Of a stretch of 64,000 nt of DNA, positions 32,710-39,567 are shown one piece after another. This DNA is from Flammeovirgaceae bacterium (GTDB lineage Bacteria > Bacteroidota > Bacteroidia > Cytophagales > Cyclobacteriaceae): contig CP054185.1 of the NCBI GenBank assembly GCA_015180985.1, positions 434,001 to 498,000 on the forward strand. Reading direction: 5' to 3'. The translations under genes and the position numbers were made by a program. The notes beneath the pieces are model-generated. The model was not told where the DNA came from and did no database searches. It saw only the letters and a list, made by a program, of their open reading frames with translations. Every line of letters begins with the position of its first letter. Positions within the stretch are counted from its first letter, which is position 1.

Positions 32710-32758
32710 CCCCTGCCCTTCTCCCCGGGAGAGGGGTGTCCGAAGGACGGGGAGAGGG
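32710..32758 (+). repeat. Dispersed C-rich/G-rich hairpin repeat, copy before queG
   Basis: C-rich arm with TTCTCCCC pairs with GGGAGAGGGG, followed by GTCCGAAGGAC and a GGGGAGAGGG end. The last G-rich segment stops 3 bases before the queG ATG at 32762 and may serve as its ribosome-binding region. The GTCCGAAGGAC part itself is a small palindrome shared in altered form with the copy at 49722. Confidence 0.65.
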
Positions 32759-33691: not shown

Positions 33692-33820
33692 CACATCGGC
33701 ACATCAACGCATCGGCACATCAACACATCAACTCATCGGCATATCAGCACATCAACTCATCGGCATATCAGCACATCAACTCATCGGCATATCAGCACAT
33801 TACCACATCGGCACATTATC
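33676..33820 (+). repeat. Short tandem repeat between queG and an esterase gene
   Basis: A run of 12-base-like units built from CACATC, AACTCATC and GGCATATC. Within it three perfect tandem copies of a 24-base unit occupy 33727-33750, 33751-33774 and 33775-33798. The array starts inside the last codons of queG and ends at the stop of the esterase gene. No spacers, so not a CRISPR. Confidence 0.9.
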
Positions 33821-34628
33821 GTCCAAACGCCCACTTTAAAAACTCAGGCAAGGCCTGCCTCCAGGTTTCGAGATTATGCTTGCCCCCTTCTATTTCGTAA
33901 TACTGAATATCCTGAAACGGACGATATCCTTTTTTTGTTAATTCGGCAATCAGATCCAGTGTATCGTCAATAGAATCAATCGTTCCATTTTCATTGCGGT
34001 CACTAAACTCATCAAGAGTGCCCGTCTGAAACCAGAACTTTAATCCGGGCTTAAACTTTCCTCTTCGAATCTGCAAATGCATCAGCCTGTCCCGTTTATC
34101 GGTATAAAACATGCTTTTAGTATCGCGCTTGCGCCACCAGAATGATCCGCTGAAGGCCCCTGCCTTTCCAAAATAGTCGGCATTATTCCAGGCAATATCA
34201 ACGGCCGACAGGCCACCCATTGAAAATCCGGCAATAGCGTGATTGGTCTTACTTTCCGAAACAGGATACCGGTAATGAATATAGGGTACCAGTTCTGTCA
34301 TGATAAACCGTGTATATTCTTTTGCTTTGGAACCGCGGCCCTTATAATCTTTTTGTGCTGCAACCCCGTATTCCTGCAGGCGATCTCCGGCATGCACAGC
34401 CACCACGATTATTTCACGGATAGAATTTGACTTACTCAAATCTTCAAGGCATTCCTTCAGTTCAATAGCTTTACCATCCTGGCCGTCATTGAGAATCAGC
34501 AAAGGATATGGCGTATTCGCCTTTTCAAACGCTTGCGGAACATAGATATCCACAATCGTATCGCGCCCCAGTAATTTAGAATGGACATCAGTTAATTGTT
34601 CAAGATGGTACAATTGCGGGGTGTCCAA
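33816..34628 (-). CDS. Esterase-D-like alpha/beta hydrolase
   Basis: 270-residue putative esterase (PF00756 type). Nucleophile elbow GFSMGG (about residues 144-149), a core of LLILNDGQDG, and a C-terminal GGKHNLETWRQALPEFL supplying the histidine. No signal peptide, so probably cytoplasmic. An acidic segment DRNENGTIDSIDDTL resembles a calcium-binding loop. It is divergent (76 bases) from a second esterase that heads the ATP-grasp/GCS2 operon, so it may act on the same product. Substrate unknown. Confidence 0.82.
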   Translation of the reverse strand: MDTPQLYHLEQLTDVHSKLLGRDTIVDIYVPQAFEKANTPYPLLILNDGQDGKAIELKECLEDLSKSNSIREIIVVAVHAGDRLQEYGVAAQKDYKGRGSKAKEYTRFIMTELVPYIHYRYPVSESKTNHAIAGFSMGGLSAVDIAWNNADYFGKAGAFSGSFWWRKRDTKSMFYTDKRDRLMHLQIRRGKFKPGLKFWFQTGTLDEFSDRNENGTIDSIDDTLDLIAELTKKGYRPFQDIQYYEIEGGKHNLETWRQALPEFLKWAFGR

Positions 34629-34704
34629 AACCGATATTGAGTTGAATTGCTTATTTTAAGGCAGCAAAAATAGAATTTTATCAAAACCCTCCACAGCCGC
34701 TGCC

Positions 34705-35415
34705 ATGCCCCACGAACATTTTCATAAATGGTACAGCCCCAACCTGGGCCGCGAAATCGGCACCCTCGCGTTTGGCACACGCGGATACCCGGTAATGCTG
34801 TTCCCAACGTCCATGGGCAGCTATTACGAAAACAAAGATTTTAAACTCATCGATAGCGTTGCCTGGTTCCTGGATGAAGGCCTTGTGAAAATCTATTGTC
34901 CGGATGGGATTGATTCAATGAGCTGGTACAACAAAAACATTCATCCGGCCGATCGGGTAAAGAATCATATCTGGTACGATCAGTTTTTATTGCACGAACT
35001 GGTGCCCCTTATGCAACAGGAAACCGGTTTACAACGCATTGCCACGGCCGGTTGCAGTTTTGGCGGTTACCATGCCACCAATTTTGCGTTTCGCCACCCC
35101 GAAGTAGTGAAGTATGTATTCAACATGGGTGCAGCCTTCGACATAAAAAGCCAGCTTGACGGTTATTACGATGACAACGTGTACTTCAATAACCCGCCCG
35201 ATTTTCTGCCTGGTGCACAAAACCCGTTCTTCAGCGACATGTTTGTAGTACTCGGCACCGGCACCCACGACATGTGCTGGGAAGCCAACGAAAAAATGGC
35301 AGTCATCCTGAAAAACAAAGGCATCAGCCACTGGCTGGATGTGCGCCCCGAACGCCCGCACGACTGGCCCGCGTGGCGCGAAATGTTCCCGCATTACCTC
35401 TCACTGATAAAATAA
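34705..35415 (+). CDS. Esterase-like alpha/beta hydrolase heading the ligase operon
   Basis: 236-residue protein of the same broad fold. Nucleophile elbow AGCSFGGYHA, an acidic candidate in GTGTHDMCWEAN, and His in RPHDWPAWREMFPHYL. The beginning HKWYSPNLGREIGTLAFG is typical of short cytoplasmic esterase-D relatives. It ends 5 bases before the ATP-grasp gene and is probably the first gene of the 34705-39567 operon. It could hydrolyse an ester, thioester or amide of the product. Confidence 0.8.
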   Translation: MPHEHFHKWYSPNLGREIGTLAFGTRGYPVMLFPTSMGSYYENKDFKLIDSVAWFLDEGLVKIYCPDGIDSMSWYNKNIHPADRVKNHIWYDQFLLHELVPLMQQETGLQRIATAGCSFGGYHATNFAFRHPEVVKYVFNMGAAFDIKSQLDGYYDDNVYFNNPPDFLPGAQNPFFSDMFVVLGTGTHDMCWEANEKMAVILKNKGISHWLDVRPERPHDWPAWREMFPHYLSLIK

Positions 35416-35420
35416 AACCT

Positions 35421-36416
35421 ATGAAAAAAATCGGAATCCTGTTTGGCATGGAACGCTCTTTCCCCGAAGCATTCGTTGAGCGCGTAAATAAAGCCGGCCT
35501 GAAAGACGTTAAGGCCGAACCGGTATTGATCGATAAAGTTCAGCAAGGCGAACCGACAGATTATGCCGTGATTATCGACCGCATTTCGCAGGATGTTCCC
35601 TTTTACCGGGCCTACCTGAAAAATGCCGCCATCTCCGGAACAGCCGTAATCAACAACCCGTTTTGGTGGAGTGCCGATGAAAAATTCTTTAACAACGCAC
35701 TGGCTGTAAAAATCGGGGTGCCCGTACCGAAAACAGTTATCCTTCCCTCGCACGATAAACCAACCGACACTACCGACTCCTCGTTCAGCAACCTGAAGTT
35801 TCCACTCTCGTGGGAAAAGATCTTTGAGTACATCGGCTGGCCGGCTTACATGAAGCCCCATGCCGGTGGCGGCTGGAAGAGCGTATACAAGCTCAACAAC
35901 ATGGATGACTTCTTCAGGGCCTACAAAGAAACCGGCCAATTGGTAATGATGCTGCAGGAAGAAATTATTTTTGAAGAGTACTTCCGCTGCTACTGCCTCG
36001 GCCGAAAGTATGTGCGTGTAATGCAGTATGAGCCGAGAAACCCCCATCATTTGCGCTACGTGGTAAATAGTAGCCCGGCATCGGAAAAAATGGTTAAGAA
36101 AGTGCATGACTATGTTTTACAATTAAACCACGCGCTCGGCTATGATTTTAACACCGTAGAGATGGCTGTGCGCGGAGGCGTACCCTACGCTATTGATTTT
36201 TGCAACCCCGCCCCCGATGCCGATGTCAACTCCGTTGGCCAGGAAAATTTTGAGTGGGTAGTTGAACATGCCGCGAAAATGGCTATCGAACGGGCCCGGC
36301 TACAAAAACCCGGTAAGGATAATCTTAGCTGGGGTACGTTTGTGTCCGATTCGGTAGCGGCTTTTCTTAAAGGAAATTCCAGGGCTGCGTCAAAATCAAA
36401 AACAAAATCTAAATAA
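35421..36416 (+). CDS. ATP-grasp carboxylate-amine ligase
   Basis: 331 residues from the ATG at 35421; earlier in-frame sequence overlaps the esterase gene. ATP-grasp marks: ATP-binding lysine K145 and glycine loop in YMKPHAGGGWKS, the EEIIFEEYFRCYCLGRKY strand region, and the metal ligands E247 (NTVEMAV), D259 and N262 (AIDFCNPAPDAD). Such enzymes join a carboxylate to an amine through an acyl phosphate. The C-terminus is a Lys/Ser-rich tail. Substrates unknown; the neighbours suggest peptide or amide formation. Confidence 0.82.
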   Translation: MKKIGILFGMERSFPEAFVERVNKAGLKDVKAEPVLIDKVQQGEPTDYAVIIDRISQDVPFYRAYLKNAAISGTAVINNPFWWSADEKFFNNALAVKIGVPVPKTVILPSHDKPTDTTDSSFSNLKFPLSWEKIFEYIGWPAYMKPHAGGGWKSVYKLNNMDDFFRAYKETGQLVMMLQEEIIFEEYFRCYCLGRKYVRVMQYEPRNPHHLRYVVNSSPASEKMVKKVHDYVLQLNHALGYDFNTVEMAVRGGVPYAIDFCNPAPDADVNSVGQENFEWVVEHAAKMAIERARLQKPGKDNLSWGTFVSDSVAAFLKGNSRAASKSKTKSK

Positions 36417-36420
36417 TTTT

Positions 36421-36461
36421 TCTCCCCTCTCCGCTGGAGAGGGGCCGGGGGGGTGAGGTCT
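36421..36461 (+). repeat. Dispersed C-rich/G-rich hairpin repeat, copy before the GCS2 gene
   Basis: CCCCTCTCC (36424-36432) pairs with GGAGAGGGG (36436-36444), followed by a run of G and GTGAGGTCT. The element fills the whole gap between the ATP-grasp and GCS2 genes and its last base touches the GCS2 ATG at 36462. Confidence 0.75.
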
Positions 36462-37559
36462 ATGGAAAAATTTACATTAGGCGTTGAAGAAGAGTACATG
36501 GTGGTTGACCCGGTGAGCCGGGAACTCACCTCGCACGACCAGAAAATTGTTGAGGCCGCCCAACAGGTGCTAAAAGACCATGTAAAAGCCGAAATGCACC
36601 AGGCTGTAGTTGAAGTAGGTACCGGCATTTGCCGCACCATTGAAGAAGCCCGCAACGACATCAGCAAACTGCGCAAACTGGTTAGCGATATTGCCCGTTC
36701 CATGAACCTGCGCATTGGTGCTTCGGGTACTCATCCGTTTTCACATTGGTCAAAGCAACTCATTACGCCCAACCCGCGCTACGATGAAATTGTAAATGAA
36801 ATGCAGGAGGCGGCCCGTTCAAACCTCATCTTCGGTTTGCATGTACACGTGGGCATTTCGGATAAAAACATGGCCATTCACATTGTGAATACCATCCGCT
36901 ATTTCCTGCCCCATGTGTATGCGCTGTCGTGCAACAGCCCGTTTTGGGAGGGCCGAAACACCGGCTTTAAATCCTTCCGCACCAAAGTGTTCGATAAATT
37001 TCCGCGCACCGGCTTACCCGACTATTTCAACGATTGGGACGACTTCAAAAACTATGTAAACCTGCTTATTAAAACCGGCTGTATAGACAACGCCAAGAAA
37101 ATCTGGTGGGATATCCGAGTACATCCTTTCTTCAATACGATTGAATTTCGGATATGCGATGTTCCAATGAAGGTAGAAGAAACCATCGCCATAACAGCCT
37201 TATTCCAGGCACTGGTGGTAAAACTGTATAAGCTGCGCAAGCAAAACATGAGTTTCATTGTGTACAACCGCGCGCTTATTAACGAGAACAAGTGGCGCGC
37301 AAGTCGGTATGGTATTGATGGCAAGCTGATTGACTTTGGCAAGCAGGAAGAAGTGGAAACCCGCGCACTGATTAACGAGTTGCTTGAATTTGTAGATGAT
37401 GTGGTGGACGAACTGGGAAGCCGCCAGGCAATTAATTATGTTTACACCATGCTGAAACAAGGTACCGGGGCCGACCGGCAACTGGCCGTGTTTCAGCAAA
37501 CCGGCAGCCTGGAAAAAGTTGTTGATTACATTACCGAACAAACCATAGAAGGATTATGA
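36462..37559 (+). CDS. GCS2-family carboxylate-amine ligase (YbdK type)
   Basis: 365 residues related to gamma-glutamate-cysteine ligase type 2. It starts MEKFTLGVEEEYMVVDP (the GVEEEY nucleotide/metal motif), then EMHQAVVEVGTGIC, GASGTHPF, FGLHVHVGI and TIEFRICDVPM, all family marks. These enzymes make a gamma-glutamyl or other amide bond using ATP. The true amine and acid substrates are not visible. The ATG directly follows a hairpin repeat; the stop overlaps the next ATG (ATGA). Confidence 0.88.
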   Translation: MEKFTLGVEEEYMVVDPVSRELTSHDQKIVEAAQQVLKDHVKAEMHQAVVEVGTGICRTIEEARNDISKLRKLVSDIARSMNLRIGASGTHPFSHWSKQLITPNPRYDEIVNEMQEAARSNLIFGLHVHVGISDKNMAIHIVNTIRYFLPHVYALSCNSPFWEGRNTGFKSFRTKVFDKFPRTGLPDYFNDWDDFKNYVNLLIKTGCIDNAKKIWWDIRVHPFFNTIEFRICDVPMKVEETIAITALFQALVVKLYKLRKQNMSFIVYNRALINENKWRASRYGIDGKLIDFGKQEEVETRALINELLEFVDDVVDELGSRQAINYVYTMLKQGTGADRQLAVFQQTGSLEKVVDYITEQTIEGL

Positions 37560-38377
37560 ACACCATCCGCATTGCCATATTGGATTTATACGAGGGTGAA
37601 GAAAACGAAGGAATGCGCTGCATTGTGCAACTGGTTGAGCAATTTAAGGCCGAATCATCATTGCCGGTTGAATACGAAGTGTTTGATGTGCGCCTGAAAA
37701 ATCAAATCGCTTCACCCGAATTCGATATCTACATTTCATCGGGCGGCCCGGGCAGCCCGCTGGCCAGCGAAGGCTCTGAATGGGAAGCTGATTATTTCGG
37801 GCTGATGGATGCCATCCGGGAACACAACAGGCAGCACCCGCAACAAAAGAAATTTGTTTTTCTCATCTGCCACTCCTTCCAGATTTACTGCAGGCACTAT
37901 AAATATGGTAAGGTAAGCAAAAGACGCAGCGAGGCTTTCGGCATTTTTCCAATACATAAAACCAAAGAGGCCCGGCACGAACCGCTTTTTAAAAACCTGG
38001 ACGATCCGTTTTATGCTGTGGATTCGCGATTTTACCAGGTTACCGAGCCCAGTGCCCGCATGCTGGCCACCGGTGCACATGTATTATGCATTGAAAAAGA
38101 ACGGCCCCATGTTGACCTGGAGCGGGCCGTGATGGGCATCCGGTTTGACGATGCCATCGTGGGTATGCAGTTTCATCCGGAAGCTGACTATGACGGCATG
38201 TTTAAATACCTGCTGCGCGAAGACAAGAAAAAAGGAATTATCGAACGGCATGGCGAAAAGAAATACGTAGAGATGCTTAAGTACCTCAACGATCCCGATA
38301 AAATCAAGCGAACTTATAAAACCATAATCCCTGCGTTTCTTCGCCAGGCAGCTGCAACACGACTGACCGTGTTATGA
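37556..38377 (+). CDS. Class I glutamine amidotransferase-like protein
   Basis: 273 residues. Oxyanion-strand motif SSGGPGSP (61-68), nucleophile C105 in LICHSFQI, and the H207/E209 pair in MQFHPEAD. The catalytic triad is complete, but the usual GxCxGxQ around the cysteine reads IxCxSxQ-like (ICHSFQ), so it may cleave gamma-glutamyl bonds instead of supplying ammonia. It has an extra C-terminal helical region of about 55 residues. Four-base overlaps with both neighbours. Confidence 0.8.
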   Translation: MNTIRIAILDLYEGEENEGMRCIVQLVEQFKAESSLPVEYEVFDVRLKNQIASPEFDIYISSGGPGSPLASEGSEWEADYFGLMDAIREHNRQHPQQKKFVFLICHSFQIYCRHYKYGKVSKRRSEAFGIFPIHKTKEARHEPLFKNLDDPFYAVDSRFYQVTEPSARMLATGAHVLCIEKERPHVDLERAVMGIRFDDAIVGMQFHPEADYDGMFKYLLREDKKKGIIERHGEKKYVEMLKYLNDPDKIKRTYKTIIPAFLRQAAATRLTVL

Positions 38378-39567
38378 TTAAAACTGCCCGCGAACGATAC
38401 AATGCCTTTTTTTCAGAGGAGAAGTACAATCGCTTCATTGAGTCCCTCGATCGGCATTTTAACTTCCCGATTAAATTCAGGGTAGCAGAAACACCCGTTT
38501 TTGTTGACCGGGTACTTAAGCAAAAACTGGTGCAGGCGGCCGAAAGCATTGTTGACTTCATTATCAGACCAGACTTTAAGAGTTTGACCGAACGTGCAAT
38601 TCCGGAAAATCTTCGGGTTCCTAATGAAGACAGTCACACACTTTTTCTGGCGCTCGACTTTGCCCTTGTAAAGGATGAGGACGGGCAATTACAGCCCCGC
38701 CTGATAGAAATGCAGGGATTTCCTTCGCTGTTCCTCTGGCAGGATTTTCTTTCGGAACAATACCGCAAGCATTTTCCGGTACCCGATAATGTTCAATCGC
38801 ATTTCAGATTAAGCCCGGAAGAATACCGATCACTTTTAACATCCGTTTTACTGAACGGTCATGATCCGAATGAGGTCATTCTGCTTGAAATTGATCCACT
38901 GCAACAAAATACCGCTATTGATTTTGTTATCACTAAACACGTAACCGGCATAGAACCCGTACACATTGGTGATATTAAGCGCACCGGCTCCAAACTCTTT
39001 TATAAAAAAAACGACCAAGAAATACAGATAAAACGAATTTACAACCGCGTTATCTTCGATGAACTGATTGCCCGTAAGGATTTGACTTTACAGTTTAACC
39101 TTACCGAAGAAGCGGAGGTGGAATGGGCCGGACATCCTAACTGGTTTTTCCGGATTAGTAAATTCACGATGCCTTTTATTAAAAGCGAGTTTATTCCTGA
39201 ATGTCGTTTTCTTAATAGCTACAACACTTTCCCTGAAGACCTTGAAAATTACGTACTGAAGCCCCTGTTCTCCTTTTCAGGCAGCGGCATCATCTTTCAT
39301 GTTACGCAAGCAGACCTGGAGGCCATACCGGAACATGATCGTCATAACTATATGCTCCAGCGAAAAGTGGTCTATGAGCCTGTTATTCAGGCACCCGATG
39401 GCCTTGTGAAAACAGAAATACGGCTGCTCTACATTTGGGAGCCGGGGAAACCGCGGCCAACACCGGTTACCAACCTGGCCCGGTTAAGCCGGGGCGAAAT
39501 GATTGGTGTGAAGTTTAACAAGAACAAAACCTGGGTGGGTGGTTCGGTTTGTTTTTTTGAACAATAG
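38374..39567 (+). CDS. Probable circularly permuted ATP-grasp protein of unknown function
   Basis: 397 residues, no close family recognised. Two segments suggest a permuted ATP-grasp ligase as in glutathionylspermidine-synthase relatives: near residue 112 RLIEMQGFPSLF, resembling the metal-binding ExN with following proline, and near 295 YVLKPLFSFSGSGIIF, resembling the Gly/Ser ATP loop. The C-terminal KTEIRLLYIWEPGKP and GEMIGVKFNKNKTW complete the active-site-like region. It overlaps the amidotransferase gene by 4 bases and ends the operon. Confidence 0.6.
   Translation: MIKTARERYNAFFSEEKYNRFIESLDRHFNFPIKFRVAETPVFVDRVLKQKLVQAAESIVDFIIRPDFKSLTERAIPENLRVPNEDSHTLFLALDFALVKDEDGQLQPRLIEMQGFPSLFLWQDFLSEQYRKHFPVPDNVQSHFRLSPEEYRSLLTSVLLNGHDPNEVILLEIDPLQQNTAIDFVITKHVTGIEPVHIGDIKRTGSKLFYKKNDQEIQIKRIYNRVIFDELIARKDLTLQFNLTEEAEVEWAGHPNWFFRISKFTMPFIKSEFIPECRFLNSYNTFPEDLENYVLKPLFSFSGSGIIFHVTQADLEAIPEHDRHNYMLQRKVVYEPVIQAPDGLVKTEIRLLYIWEPGKPRPTPVTNLARLSRGEMIGVKFNKNKTWVGGSVCFFEQ

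What the first reader, a model, noticed from the sequence alone, without database searches (positions are those of the whole stretch)
33816..39567. Uncharacterised peptide/amide-forming operon: two esterases, ATP-grasp, GCS2 ligase, amidotransferase-like protein and permuted ATP-grasp
Seen: six adjacent genes, five on one strand with gaps of 5 and 45 bases and two 4-base overlaps, the sixth divergent. Known: ATP-grasp and GCS2 enzymes form amide bonds; class I amidotransferases supply ammonia or cleave gamma-glutamyl bonds. Inferred: up to three bond-forming activities plus one amidase and two esterases would build and trim a small peptide-like metabolite or modify a protein tail. Related amidoligase clusters have been predicted by comparative genomics, but I cannot tell whether this exact set has been described. 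There is no transporter, carrier protein or obvious precursor peptide inside it.
Basis: partly seen in the sequence, partly recalled or inferred. Interest (0 to 1): 0.78.

Follow-up and report, generated by a model that had tools for sequence, protein, structure and literature searches.

The report
Bacteroidota amide-ligase operon, product unknown
Six neighbouring genes in this bacterium belong to a widespread, apparently undescribed pathway that probably stitches small building blocks together with amide bonds and trims the product, but what the product is remains unknown.

Summary
In detail: six genes at 33816-39567 with the stated gaps and overlaps. They are a real system, not chance neighbours. 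The full order, including the divergent esterase, recurs in 35 of the 80 closest loci by tblastn (28 of 80 by a stricter ORF count). Across 247 Bacteroidota genomes the ligase genes go together even when unlinked: P3 in 84, P6 in 73, both in 70; the link holds within 13 families where presence varies.

P6 reaches no Pfam or NCBIfam family; its model (pLDDT 92.8) has the glutathione synthetase / glutathionylspermidine synthetase fold. P3 has a D-Ala-D-Ala/ArgX-like ATP-grasp fold. All 13 P3+P5 genomes lacking P6 carry another permuted ATP-grasp, X, between P3 and P5. A further ATP-grasp, Z, occurs in 51 genomes, all with P3, but not here.

Best reading: stepwise, NRPS-independent assembly of a small, probably gamma-glutamyl-type, amide metabolite, trimmed by P5 and two alpha/beta-hydrolases. 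Substrates and product are inferred. Bacillithiol gene bshC is near-universal (242 of 247), so this is not its replacement. My searches of open-licence papers listed no description of it.

The parts
33816..34628 (-). P1: PF00756 esterase (enterochelin-esterase/feruloyl-esterase-like alpha/beta-hydrolase), divergent from the operon
   Evidence: Pfam 1.3e-33; Ser136, Asp206, His251 invariant in 38 of 38 rows; strong orthologues (E<1e-59) in 20 of 247 genomes, all of them P3-positive
34705..35415 (+). P2: small alpha/beta-hydrolase of the PF00756 family
   Evidence: Pfam 1.2e-6, 29 bits against cut-off 22; Ser118, Asp189, His219 invariant in 50 of 50 rows
35421..36416 (+). P3: non-permuted ATP-grasp ligase, Ddl/LysX-ArgX/graspetide-ligase-like fold; the most frequent of the four ligase/amidotransferase genes
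   Evidence: no Pfam; sub-threshold LysX/RimK; AF2 pLDDT 85.4; Foldseek E about 1e-12 to Ddl, ArgX, PsnB; Lys145, Gly149-151, Asp259, Asn262 invariant in 32 of 32
36424..36444 (.). GC-rich palindrome in the 45-bp P3/P4 gap (repeat; probably not functionally part of the system)
   Evidence: second copy at 32716-32736; none in any of 100 shuffles
36462..37559 (+). P4: GCS2/YbdK-type carboxylate-amine ligase
   Evidence: Pfam 2.5e-64, NCBIfam PRK13515 553 bits, YbdK structure 1r8g 2e-52
37556..38377 (+). P5: class-I glutamine-amidotransferase-fold protein with intact Cys105/His207/Glu209
   Evidence: Pfam 5.4e-8; triad invariant in 30 of 30; profile match to homoserine O-succinyltransferase 1.2e-5
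38374..39567 (+). P6: glutathione-synthetase/glutathionylspermidine-synthetase-fold (permuted) ATP-grasp ligase, no Pfam family
   Evidence: AF2 pLDDT 92.8, pTM 0.91; Foldseek 1m0w 7e-14, 3n6x 9e-14, YgiC 7uk8 7e-13, Cp1B 9cjn 8e-10; Lys296, Ser300, Gly303, Gly305, Glu348, Arg350, Asn382 invariant in 30 of 30

Best explanation
The six genes encode a dedicated pathway that builds one small amide-linked metabolite by successive ATP-dependent ligases, without an NRPS or a ribosomal precursor, and trims or recycles it with three hydrolase-fold enzymes. Proposed order: P4 (GCS2/YbdK type) joins the side-chain carboxyl of an acidic amino acid, most likely glutamate, to an amine; P6 (glutathione-synthetase fold) activates the remaining carboxyl of that pseudo-dipeptide and adds a second amine or amino acid; P3 (Ddl/ArgX-type ATP-grasp) adds a third unit or makes one of the building blocks. 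P5 (Cys-His-Glu, class I amidotransferase fold) cleaves the gamma-glutamyl-type amide or transfers its acyl group. P1 and P2 remove ester or thioester groups. In other lineages X stands in for P6, and Z adds to or replaces P4. Shown: conservation, co-occurrence, predicted folds, conserved catalytic-type residues, X/P6 alternation. Inferred: that the product is a small molecule (about 0.5), and every substrate and the order of steps (about 0.15-0.2).
For: Order conserved in 35 of 80 named loci with all six genes (28 of 80 in the ORF-based count); small gaps, e.g. P5/P6 under 100 bases in 60 of 72 loci and overlapping or abutting in 21. Co-occurrence in 247 genomes: P3&P4 70, P3&P6 70, P4&P6 68, kept within 13 families polymorphic for the set (P3 v P6-or-X stratified z 8.1; 42 and 42 genomes, 41 shared). 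24 genomes have P3+P4+P6 without P5, and in 20 of these the three are not all within 10 kb (positions; total), so they are kept together without linkage. P6 fold is that of enzymes that add an amine to the free carboxyl of a gamma-glutamyl peptide: yeast glutathione synthetase, glutathionylspermidine synthetase, YgiC (substrates recalled), and of Cp1B, which joins a dicarboxylic acid to an amino acid in E-64 synthesis (passages of PMC12568646). P4 is YbdK-like. Catalytic-type residues are invariant. P6 and X alternate: 13 of 13 P6-less P3+P5 genomes have X between P3 and P5; 18 of 22 P6 genomes tested have no X match and 4 only weak ones of 18-24 bits. Operon gaps leave no room for a precursor peptide.
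Against: No substrate, product, phenotype or expression datum. P4 is missing from 14 of 84 P3 genomes and P5 from 26 of 84, so neither is indispensable; P6 is present without P3 in 3 of 73 genomes. P4 belongs to a family whose best-known member has only weak gamma-glutamylcysteine synthetase activity (recalled). P6 and P3 are too far in sequence from any characterised enzyme to borrow a substrate. The glycines that usually flank the nucleophile of class I amidotransferases (recalled motif) are not kept in P5, which reads ICHSFQ.
Confidence: 0.5

Rival explanations
1. P5 and P6 (or X) work as a pair: P5 releases ammonia from glutamine and P6/X uses it to make a primary amide, as carbamoyl phosphate synthetase or GatD-MurT do; P3 and P4 build the acid that is amidated.
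For: P5 and P6 are the tightest gene pair and share a contig away from P3/P4 in G091, G150 and G190. P5 has PF00117 and an intact triad. X is also next to P5.
Against: P6 occurs without P5 in 27 of 73 genomes, and P5 and P6 share a contig in only 36 of the 46 genomes with both. The glycines normally around the nucleophilic cysteine are lost in P5, and its best structural profile match is an acyltransferase.
Confidence: 0.15
2. Protein or peptide tail modification: P3 (RimK/LysX/R2K-like) and the other ligases add amino acids to a target protein, as RimK or LysX/ArgX do, and P5/peptidases remove them.
For: P3 fold matches ArgX and graspetide ligases; 2 of 32 P3 members touch the R2K (CDC123-clade) ATP-grasp model, best 3e-4; sub-threshold LysX/RimK.
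Against: No acceptor protein is as conserved as the operon: apart from the six genes no ORF family is in more than 21 of the 80 loci (ORFs of 80 aa or more only, and not every smaller cluster was annotated). GCS2 and glutathione-synthetase-type ligases act on small molecules (recalled).
Confidence: 0.12
3. Amine utilisation or detoxification: P4 gamma-glutamylates an amine, later steps process it, P5 releases glutamate, in the manner of the Puu pathway.
For: A class III aminotransferase (ArgD-like, below NCBIfam cut-offs) lies near P6 in 17 of 80 loci and within 200 bases after it in 10; P5 shares the fold class of PuuD (recalled).
Against: The aminotransferase link is confined to Spirosoma/Dyadobacter-type and a few Cytophagales MAG loci; I identified no oxidase or aldehyde dehydrogenase among the recurrent clusters, though not all clusters were annotated; three ligases are more than such a pathway needs.
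Confidence: 0.1
4. An alternative low-molecular-weight thiol (a glutathione analogue) that replaces bacillithiol or glutathione, with the esterases acting like S-formylglutathione hydrolase.
For: GCS2 plus glutathione-synthetase fold; P1 (2e-4) and P2 (0.05) touch the S-formylglutathione hydrolase model weakly.
Against: bshC is found in 242 of 247 genomes, this one included, so no gap needs filling; of the five without a match two (G109, G237) carry the set and three do not. 8 of 13 X-type genomes lack P4. Glutathione genes were not searched; an additional thiol is not excluded.
Confidence: 0.1
5. Chance neighbours or separate housekeeping genes.
For: The genes are dispersed in some lineages.
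Against: Pairwise co-occurrence p 2e-19 to 3e-48 (related genomes are not independent), and stratified z 6.6-8.1 within 13 polymorphic families.
Confidence: 0.02

Closest known systems
Glutathione / glutathionylspermidine synthesis (GCS ligase followed by eukaryotic-type glutathione synthetase or Gss; E. coli YbdK and YgiC/YjfC)
   Same: P4 is in the YbdK family; P6 has the fold of yeast glutathione synthetase, Gss and YgiC.
   Different: P6 is not in their sequence families (no Pfam family for the window protein, 1 of 30 members at 3.7e-4 to GSP_synth); an extra ATP-grasp (P3), P5 and two alpha/beta-hydrolases are added.
NRPS-independent ligase-built small peptides (E-64 Cp1B/Cp1D, dapdiamide DdaF/DdaG, tabtoxin TabS, cystargolide CysC/CysD)
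   Same: Logic of stand-alone amide ligases in a gene cluster; Cp1B is a Foldseek match of P6. Seen as passages of PMC12568646.
   Different: Those are single natural-product clusters; this set is in about a third of the sampled Bacteroidota genomes (P3 84 of 247). No warhead-forming enzyme was seen here.
Amidoligase gene neighbourhoods predicted by Iyer, Abhiman, Burroughs and Aravind (2009)
   Same: Recalled to catalogue ATP-grasp and glutamine-synthetase-like ligases and linked peptidases; the general kind fits.
   Different: The paper is not held, so whether this exact set is in it is unknown.
LysX/ArgX and RimK (ATP-grasp ligases acting on a carrier or ribosomal protein)
   Same: Same ATP-grasp fold class as P3.
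   Different: P3 far below the curated cut-offs (LysX_arch 25.8 against 275.6; rimK_fam 24.2 against 143.4); no LysW-like carrier gene inside the operon; none was searched for elsewhere.

Membership tests
YbdK/GCS2 carboxylate-amine ligase (P4) | score over curated cut-offs of PF04107, TIGR02050 and PRK13515 | tested here: met
   217.9/21, 322.2/176.4 and 553.3/371 bits
YbdK/GCS2 carboxylate-amine ligase (P4) | glutamate + amine ligase activity | not testable with these tools
   needs assay
Class I glutamine amidotransferase (P5) | fold family over cut-off and Cys-His-Glu triad | tested here: met
   33.2/22.8 bits; C105, H207, E209 invariant in 30 of 30
Class I glutamine amidotransferase (P5) | glycine-flanked nucleophile (GxCxG, recalled) | tested here: not met
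   ICHSFQ instead; H106 and S107 invariant in 30 of 30
Glutathione synthetase / GspS family (P6) | three-dimensional fold | tested here: met
   Foldseek E 7e-14 to 1m0w, 9e-14 to 3n6x, on a predicted model
Glutathione synthetase / GspS family (P6) | membership of the sequence family (PF03738 and kin) | tested here: not met
   no family over cut-off for the window protein; 1 of 30 members at 3.7e-4; profile to YgiC only 0.055
RimK/LysX family (P3) | score over curated cut-off | tested here: not met
   24.2/143.4 and 25.8/275.6
RimK/LysX family (P3) | ATP-grasp fold with conserved lysine, Gly-rich loop and Asp/Asn metal ligands | tested here: met
Graspetide (RiPP) cluster | precursor peptide gene next to the ATP-grasp gene | tested here: inconclusive
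   no room inside the operon (gaps 76, 5, 45, -4, -4); small ORFs (below 90 aa in the window, below 80 aa in relatives) outside it were not examined
Permuted ATP-grasp + permuted GS-like + NTN-hydrolase tagging system (recalled from Iyer 2009) | alpha-helical domain and NTN hydrolase genes | tested here: not met
   no such Pfam match among the six and two downstream genes; other places in the genome not searched
Substitute for bacillithiol | anti-occurrence with bshC | tested here: not met
   bshC in 242 of 247 genomes, 237 over cut-off

The most novel reading that the evidence does not exclude
A phylum-wide, undescribed metabolite pathway of Bacteroidota: a core ATP-grasp (P3) coupled to interchangeable ligase modules (P6 or X for one bond, P4 and/or Z for another) makes a previously unseen gamma-glutamyl-type or polyamine-type cofactor, osmolyte or signal, kept or lost as one unit and present in about a third of sampled genomes.
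Probability: 0.35. Interest if true: 0.8.

Novelty: new variant of a known kind. Interest (0 to 1): 0.56.

Why it matters
Ligase-built peptides are best known from individual natural-product clusters or from a few very common cofactors such as glutathione (recalled). This set is present in about a third of the sampled Bacteroidota genomes, keeps its catalytic-type residues, and behaves as one unit in presence and absence, so its product is likely useful to the cell. P6 belongs to a ligase family without a Pfam or NCBIfam name, and the X/P6 and possible Z/P4 alternations give a way to deduce which step each enzyme performs. It can be tested directly in culturable hosts that carry it (Algoriphagus, Pedobacter, Dyadobacter, Hymenobacter).

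Tried and rejected
Replacement thiol: the bshC search showed bacillithiol synthesis is near-universal. Sequence look-up of P6, P3 and P5 in solved structures gave no close characterised relative. Phage families: no PHROG match for P3, P5, P6. Plasmid carriage: no match for P6 in 72,556 plasmid records. Promoter/terminator scan: not above shuffled background (promoter-like 6 against 10.0; terminator-like 10 against 9.8). Profile comparison P6 v X: a collinear alignment over the ATP-grasp motifs but probability only 1.4%, E 0.037, so their common fold class is inferred (one X protein is CP_ATPgrasp_2), not from that alignment. Literature: nine searches, of which I saw the listings with titles and starts of abstracts; no listed paper is about this gene set. 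They cover open-licence PMC papers only; the most specific one (at least 4 of 5 terms) returned 0. Passages were read in PMC4431377 and PMC12568646, abstract and outline in PMC13338154. Neighbours that looked promising but are confined to one or few lineages: ArgD-like class III aminotransferase (17 of 80 loci), aromatic amino acid lyase next to P3, Amidohydro_3 next to P6 and an S10 carboxypeptidase next to P4 in one family, an AMP-binding enzyme in another, and a beta-aspartyl-peptidase-like gene 2.4-3.9 kb upstream of P1 in seven Hymenobacter-type loci and next to Z in one deep genus.
Full report
WHAT IS THERE. The window is part of a complete 3.38-Mb genome. The flanking genes look unrelated: RuvB and a queuosine-type reductase upstream, TM2-domain and DUF2752 proteins and chorismate synthase downstream (names by eye, except TM2 and DUF2752); none of them is among the six most recurrent families of the relatives.

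FAMILIES. P1 and P2 are PF00756 alpha/beta-hydrolases; P4 is a YbdK-type GCS2 ligase over three curated cut-offs; P5 is over the PF00117 cut-off; P3 and P6 reach no Pfam cut-off. Pfam scans of 30 P6 members and 32 P3 members gave only 1 (GSP_synth, 3.7e-4) and 2 (R2K_2, 3e-4) weak hits. YbdK (1r8g, 2e-52) and the related 1tt4 (1e-53) are the close solved relatives of P4.

FOLDS. P6: AlphaFold2 on the 30-sequence alignment A1 gave pLDDT 92.8, pTM 0.91; the 20 Foldseek matches with E below 0.001 are glutathione synthetase, homoglutathione synthetase, glutathionylspermidine synthetase or its putative relative, YgiC/YjfC, nematode glutathione-synthetase-like proteins and the fungal ligase Cp1B. 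TM-scores are moderate (0.48-0.62 by query). P3: pLDDT 85.4; 519 matches with E below 0.001, led by D-Ala-D-Ala ligases, with LysX/ArgX and the graspetide ligases PsnB and 7mgv among the first 50 listed. So P3 is an ordinary ATP-grasp and P6 one of the glutathione-synthetase class (that this class is circularly permuted is recalled, not tested).

CATALYTIC-TYPE RESIDUES. P6: Lys296, the loop 300-305 (Ser300, Gly303, Gly305), Glu348, Arg350 and Asn382 invariant in 30 of 30. P3: Lys145, Gly149-151, Asp259, Asn262 invariant in 32 of 32. P5: Cys105, His207, Glu209 invariant in 30 of 30. P1: Ser136, Asp206, His251 in 38 of 38; P2: Ser118, Asp189, His219 in 50 of 50. Roles of single residues are assigned by analogy.

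CONSERVED ORDER. Among these 80, by tblastn at E<1e-8: full order with divergent P1 35; P2-P6 without a P1 11; P2-P6 with a distant esterase (25-35% identity to P1) downstream on the other strand 10; P4-P6 8; P5-P6 7; P6 alone 6; three other arrangements 1 each. A stricter count on called ORFs (E<1e-20) gives all six in 28, P2-P6 in 20. Some short arrangements are cut by contig ends (e.g. L035, L077). Gaps: P5/P6 under 100 bases in 60 of 72, P3/P4 43 of 57, P4/P5 41 of 64, P2/P3 32 of 49 (ORF-caller starts).

CO-OCCURRENCE. In 247 genomes of the phylum, after dropping weak relatives, P3 is in 84, P4 in 73, P5 in 59, P6 in 73; all four in 41, within 10 kb in 25 of those; P3+P4+P6 without P5 in 24; P6 without P3 in 3. 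Related genomes are not independent, so I also stratified by family: in 13 families (90 genomes) where presence varies, P3 and (P6 or X) agree in all but two genomes. P1 orthologues with E below 1e-59 are in 20 genomes, all with P3. P2 has paralogues and was not counted this way.

MECHANISM. The best-supported reading is a small-molecule assembly pathway, because P4 and P6 resemble two successive enzymes that in glutathione and glutathionylspermidine synthesis make a gamma-glutamyl amide and then extend its other end (recalled biochemistry; relatives). P3 would add a third unit. P5 would cleave or transfer. P1 and P2 would act on esters or thioesters. The order and chemistry are inference. The paper on E-64 (passages only) shows the same fold class joining a dicarboxylic acid to an amino acid, so P6's electrophile need not be an amino acid. 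The abstract and outline of PMC13338154 contrast glutathione's simple ligases with an NRPS and replace the latter by stand-alone ligases; I use it only as an analogy.

AGAINST AND LIMITS. P4 and P5 are absent from some genomes that keep the rest; no functional data exist here; the thiol rival is weakened but not excluded by near-universal bshC (two of the five genomes without a bshC match carry the set), and glutathione genes were not searched; X was not searched for in all genomes; the literature check is limited to listings of open-licence papers, and the most relevant older comparative-genomics paper could not be read. Novelty is therefore stated as a new variant of a known kind, not as categorically new.

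Noticed in passing
33692-33816: Tandem array of a 24-base unit, 5.2 copies, between the upstream reductase gene and P1.
   Followed up: no
36424-36444 and 32716-32736: GC-rich palindrome present twice in the window (second copy with 2 mismatches), once in the P3/P4 gap; none in any of 100 shuffles. Looks like a dispersed repeat.
   Followed up: partly
L130, L140, L142, L145-L147 (P3); L159, L160, L162-L167 (P6); L140, L145, L147 (P4): In one set of small genomes P3 is next to an aromatic amino acid lyase gene, P6 next to an Amidohydro_3 gene and P4 next to a serine carboxypeptidase gene (positions; one member of each tested with Pfam).
   Followed up: partly
L135:4347-9893: P3, TetR regulator, HlyD-type and MFS transporter genes and P4 in one same-strand run.
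   Followed up: no
L096:12472-16280 (and 9 similar loci): ATP-grasp Z, an M17 aminopeptidase and a PF00756 esterase form their own conserved block beside the operon.
   Followed up: yes
L036:2075-3313, L037:2339-3577, L038:2701-3930, L040:2522-3760: An ornithine aminotransferase-type gene (one tested: TIGR01885, 661 bits against 378) lies 0.6-2.1 kb upstream of P1 in four Cyclobacteriaceae-type MAG loci.
   Followed up: no
G000:C1:99162-99950 (L002): A second, weaker GCS2-family gene elsewhere in this genome (79 bits).
   Followed up: no
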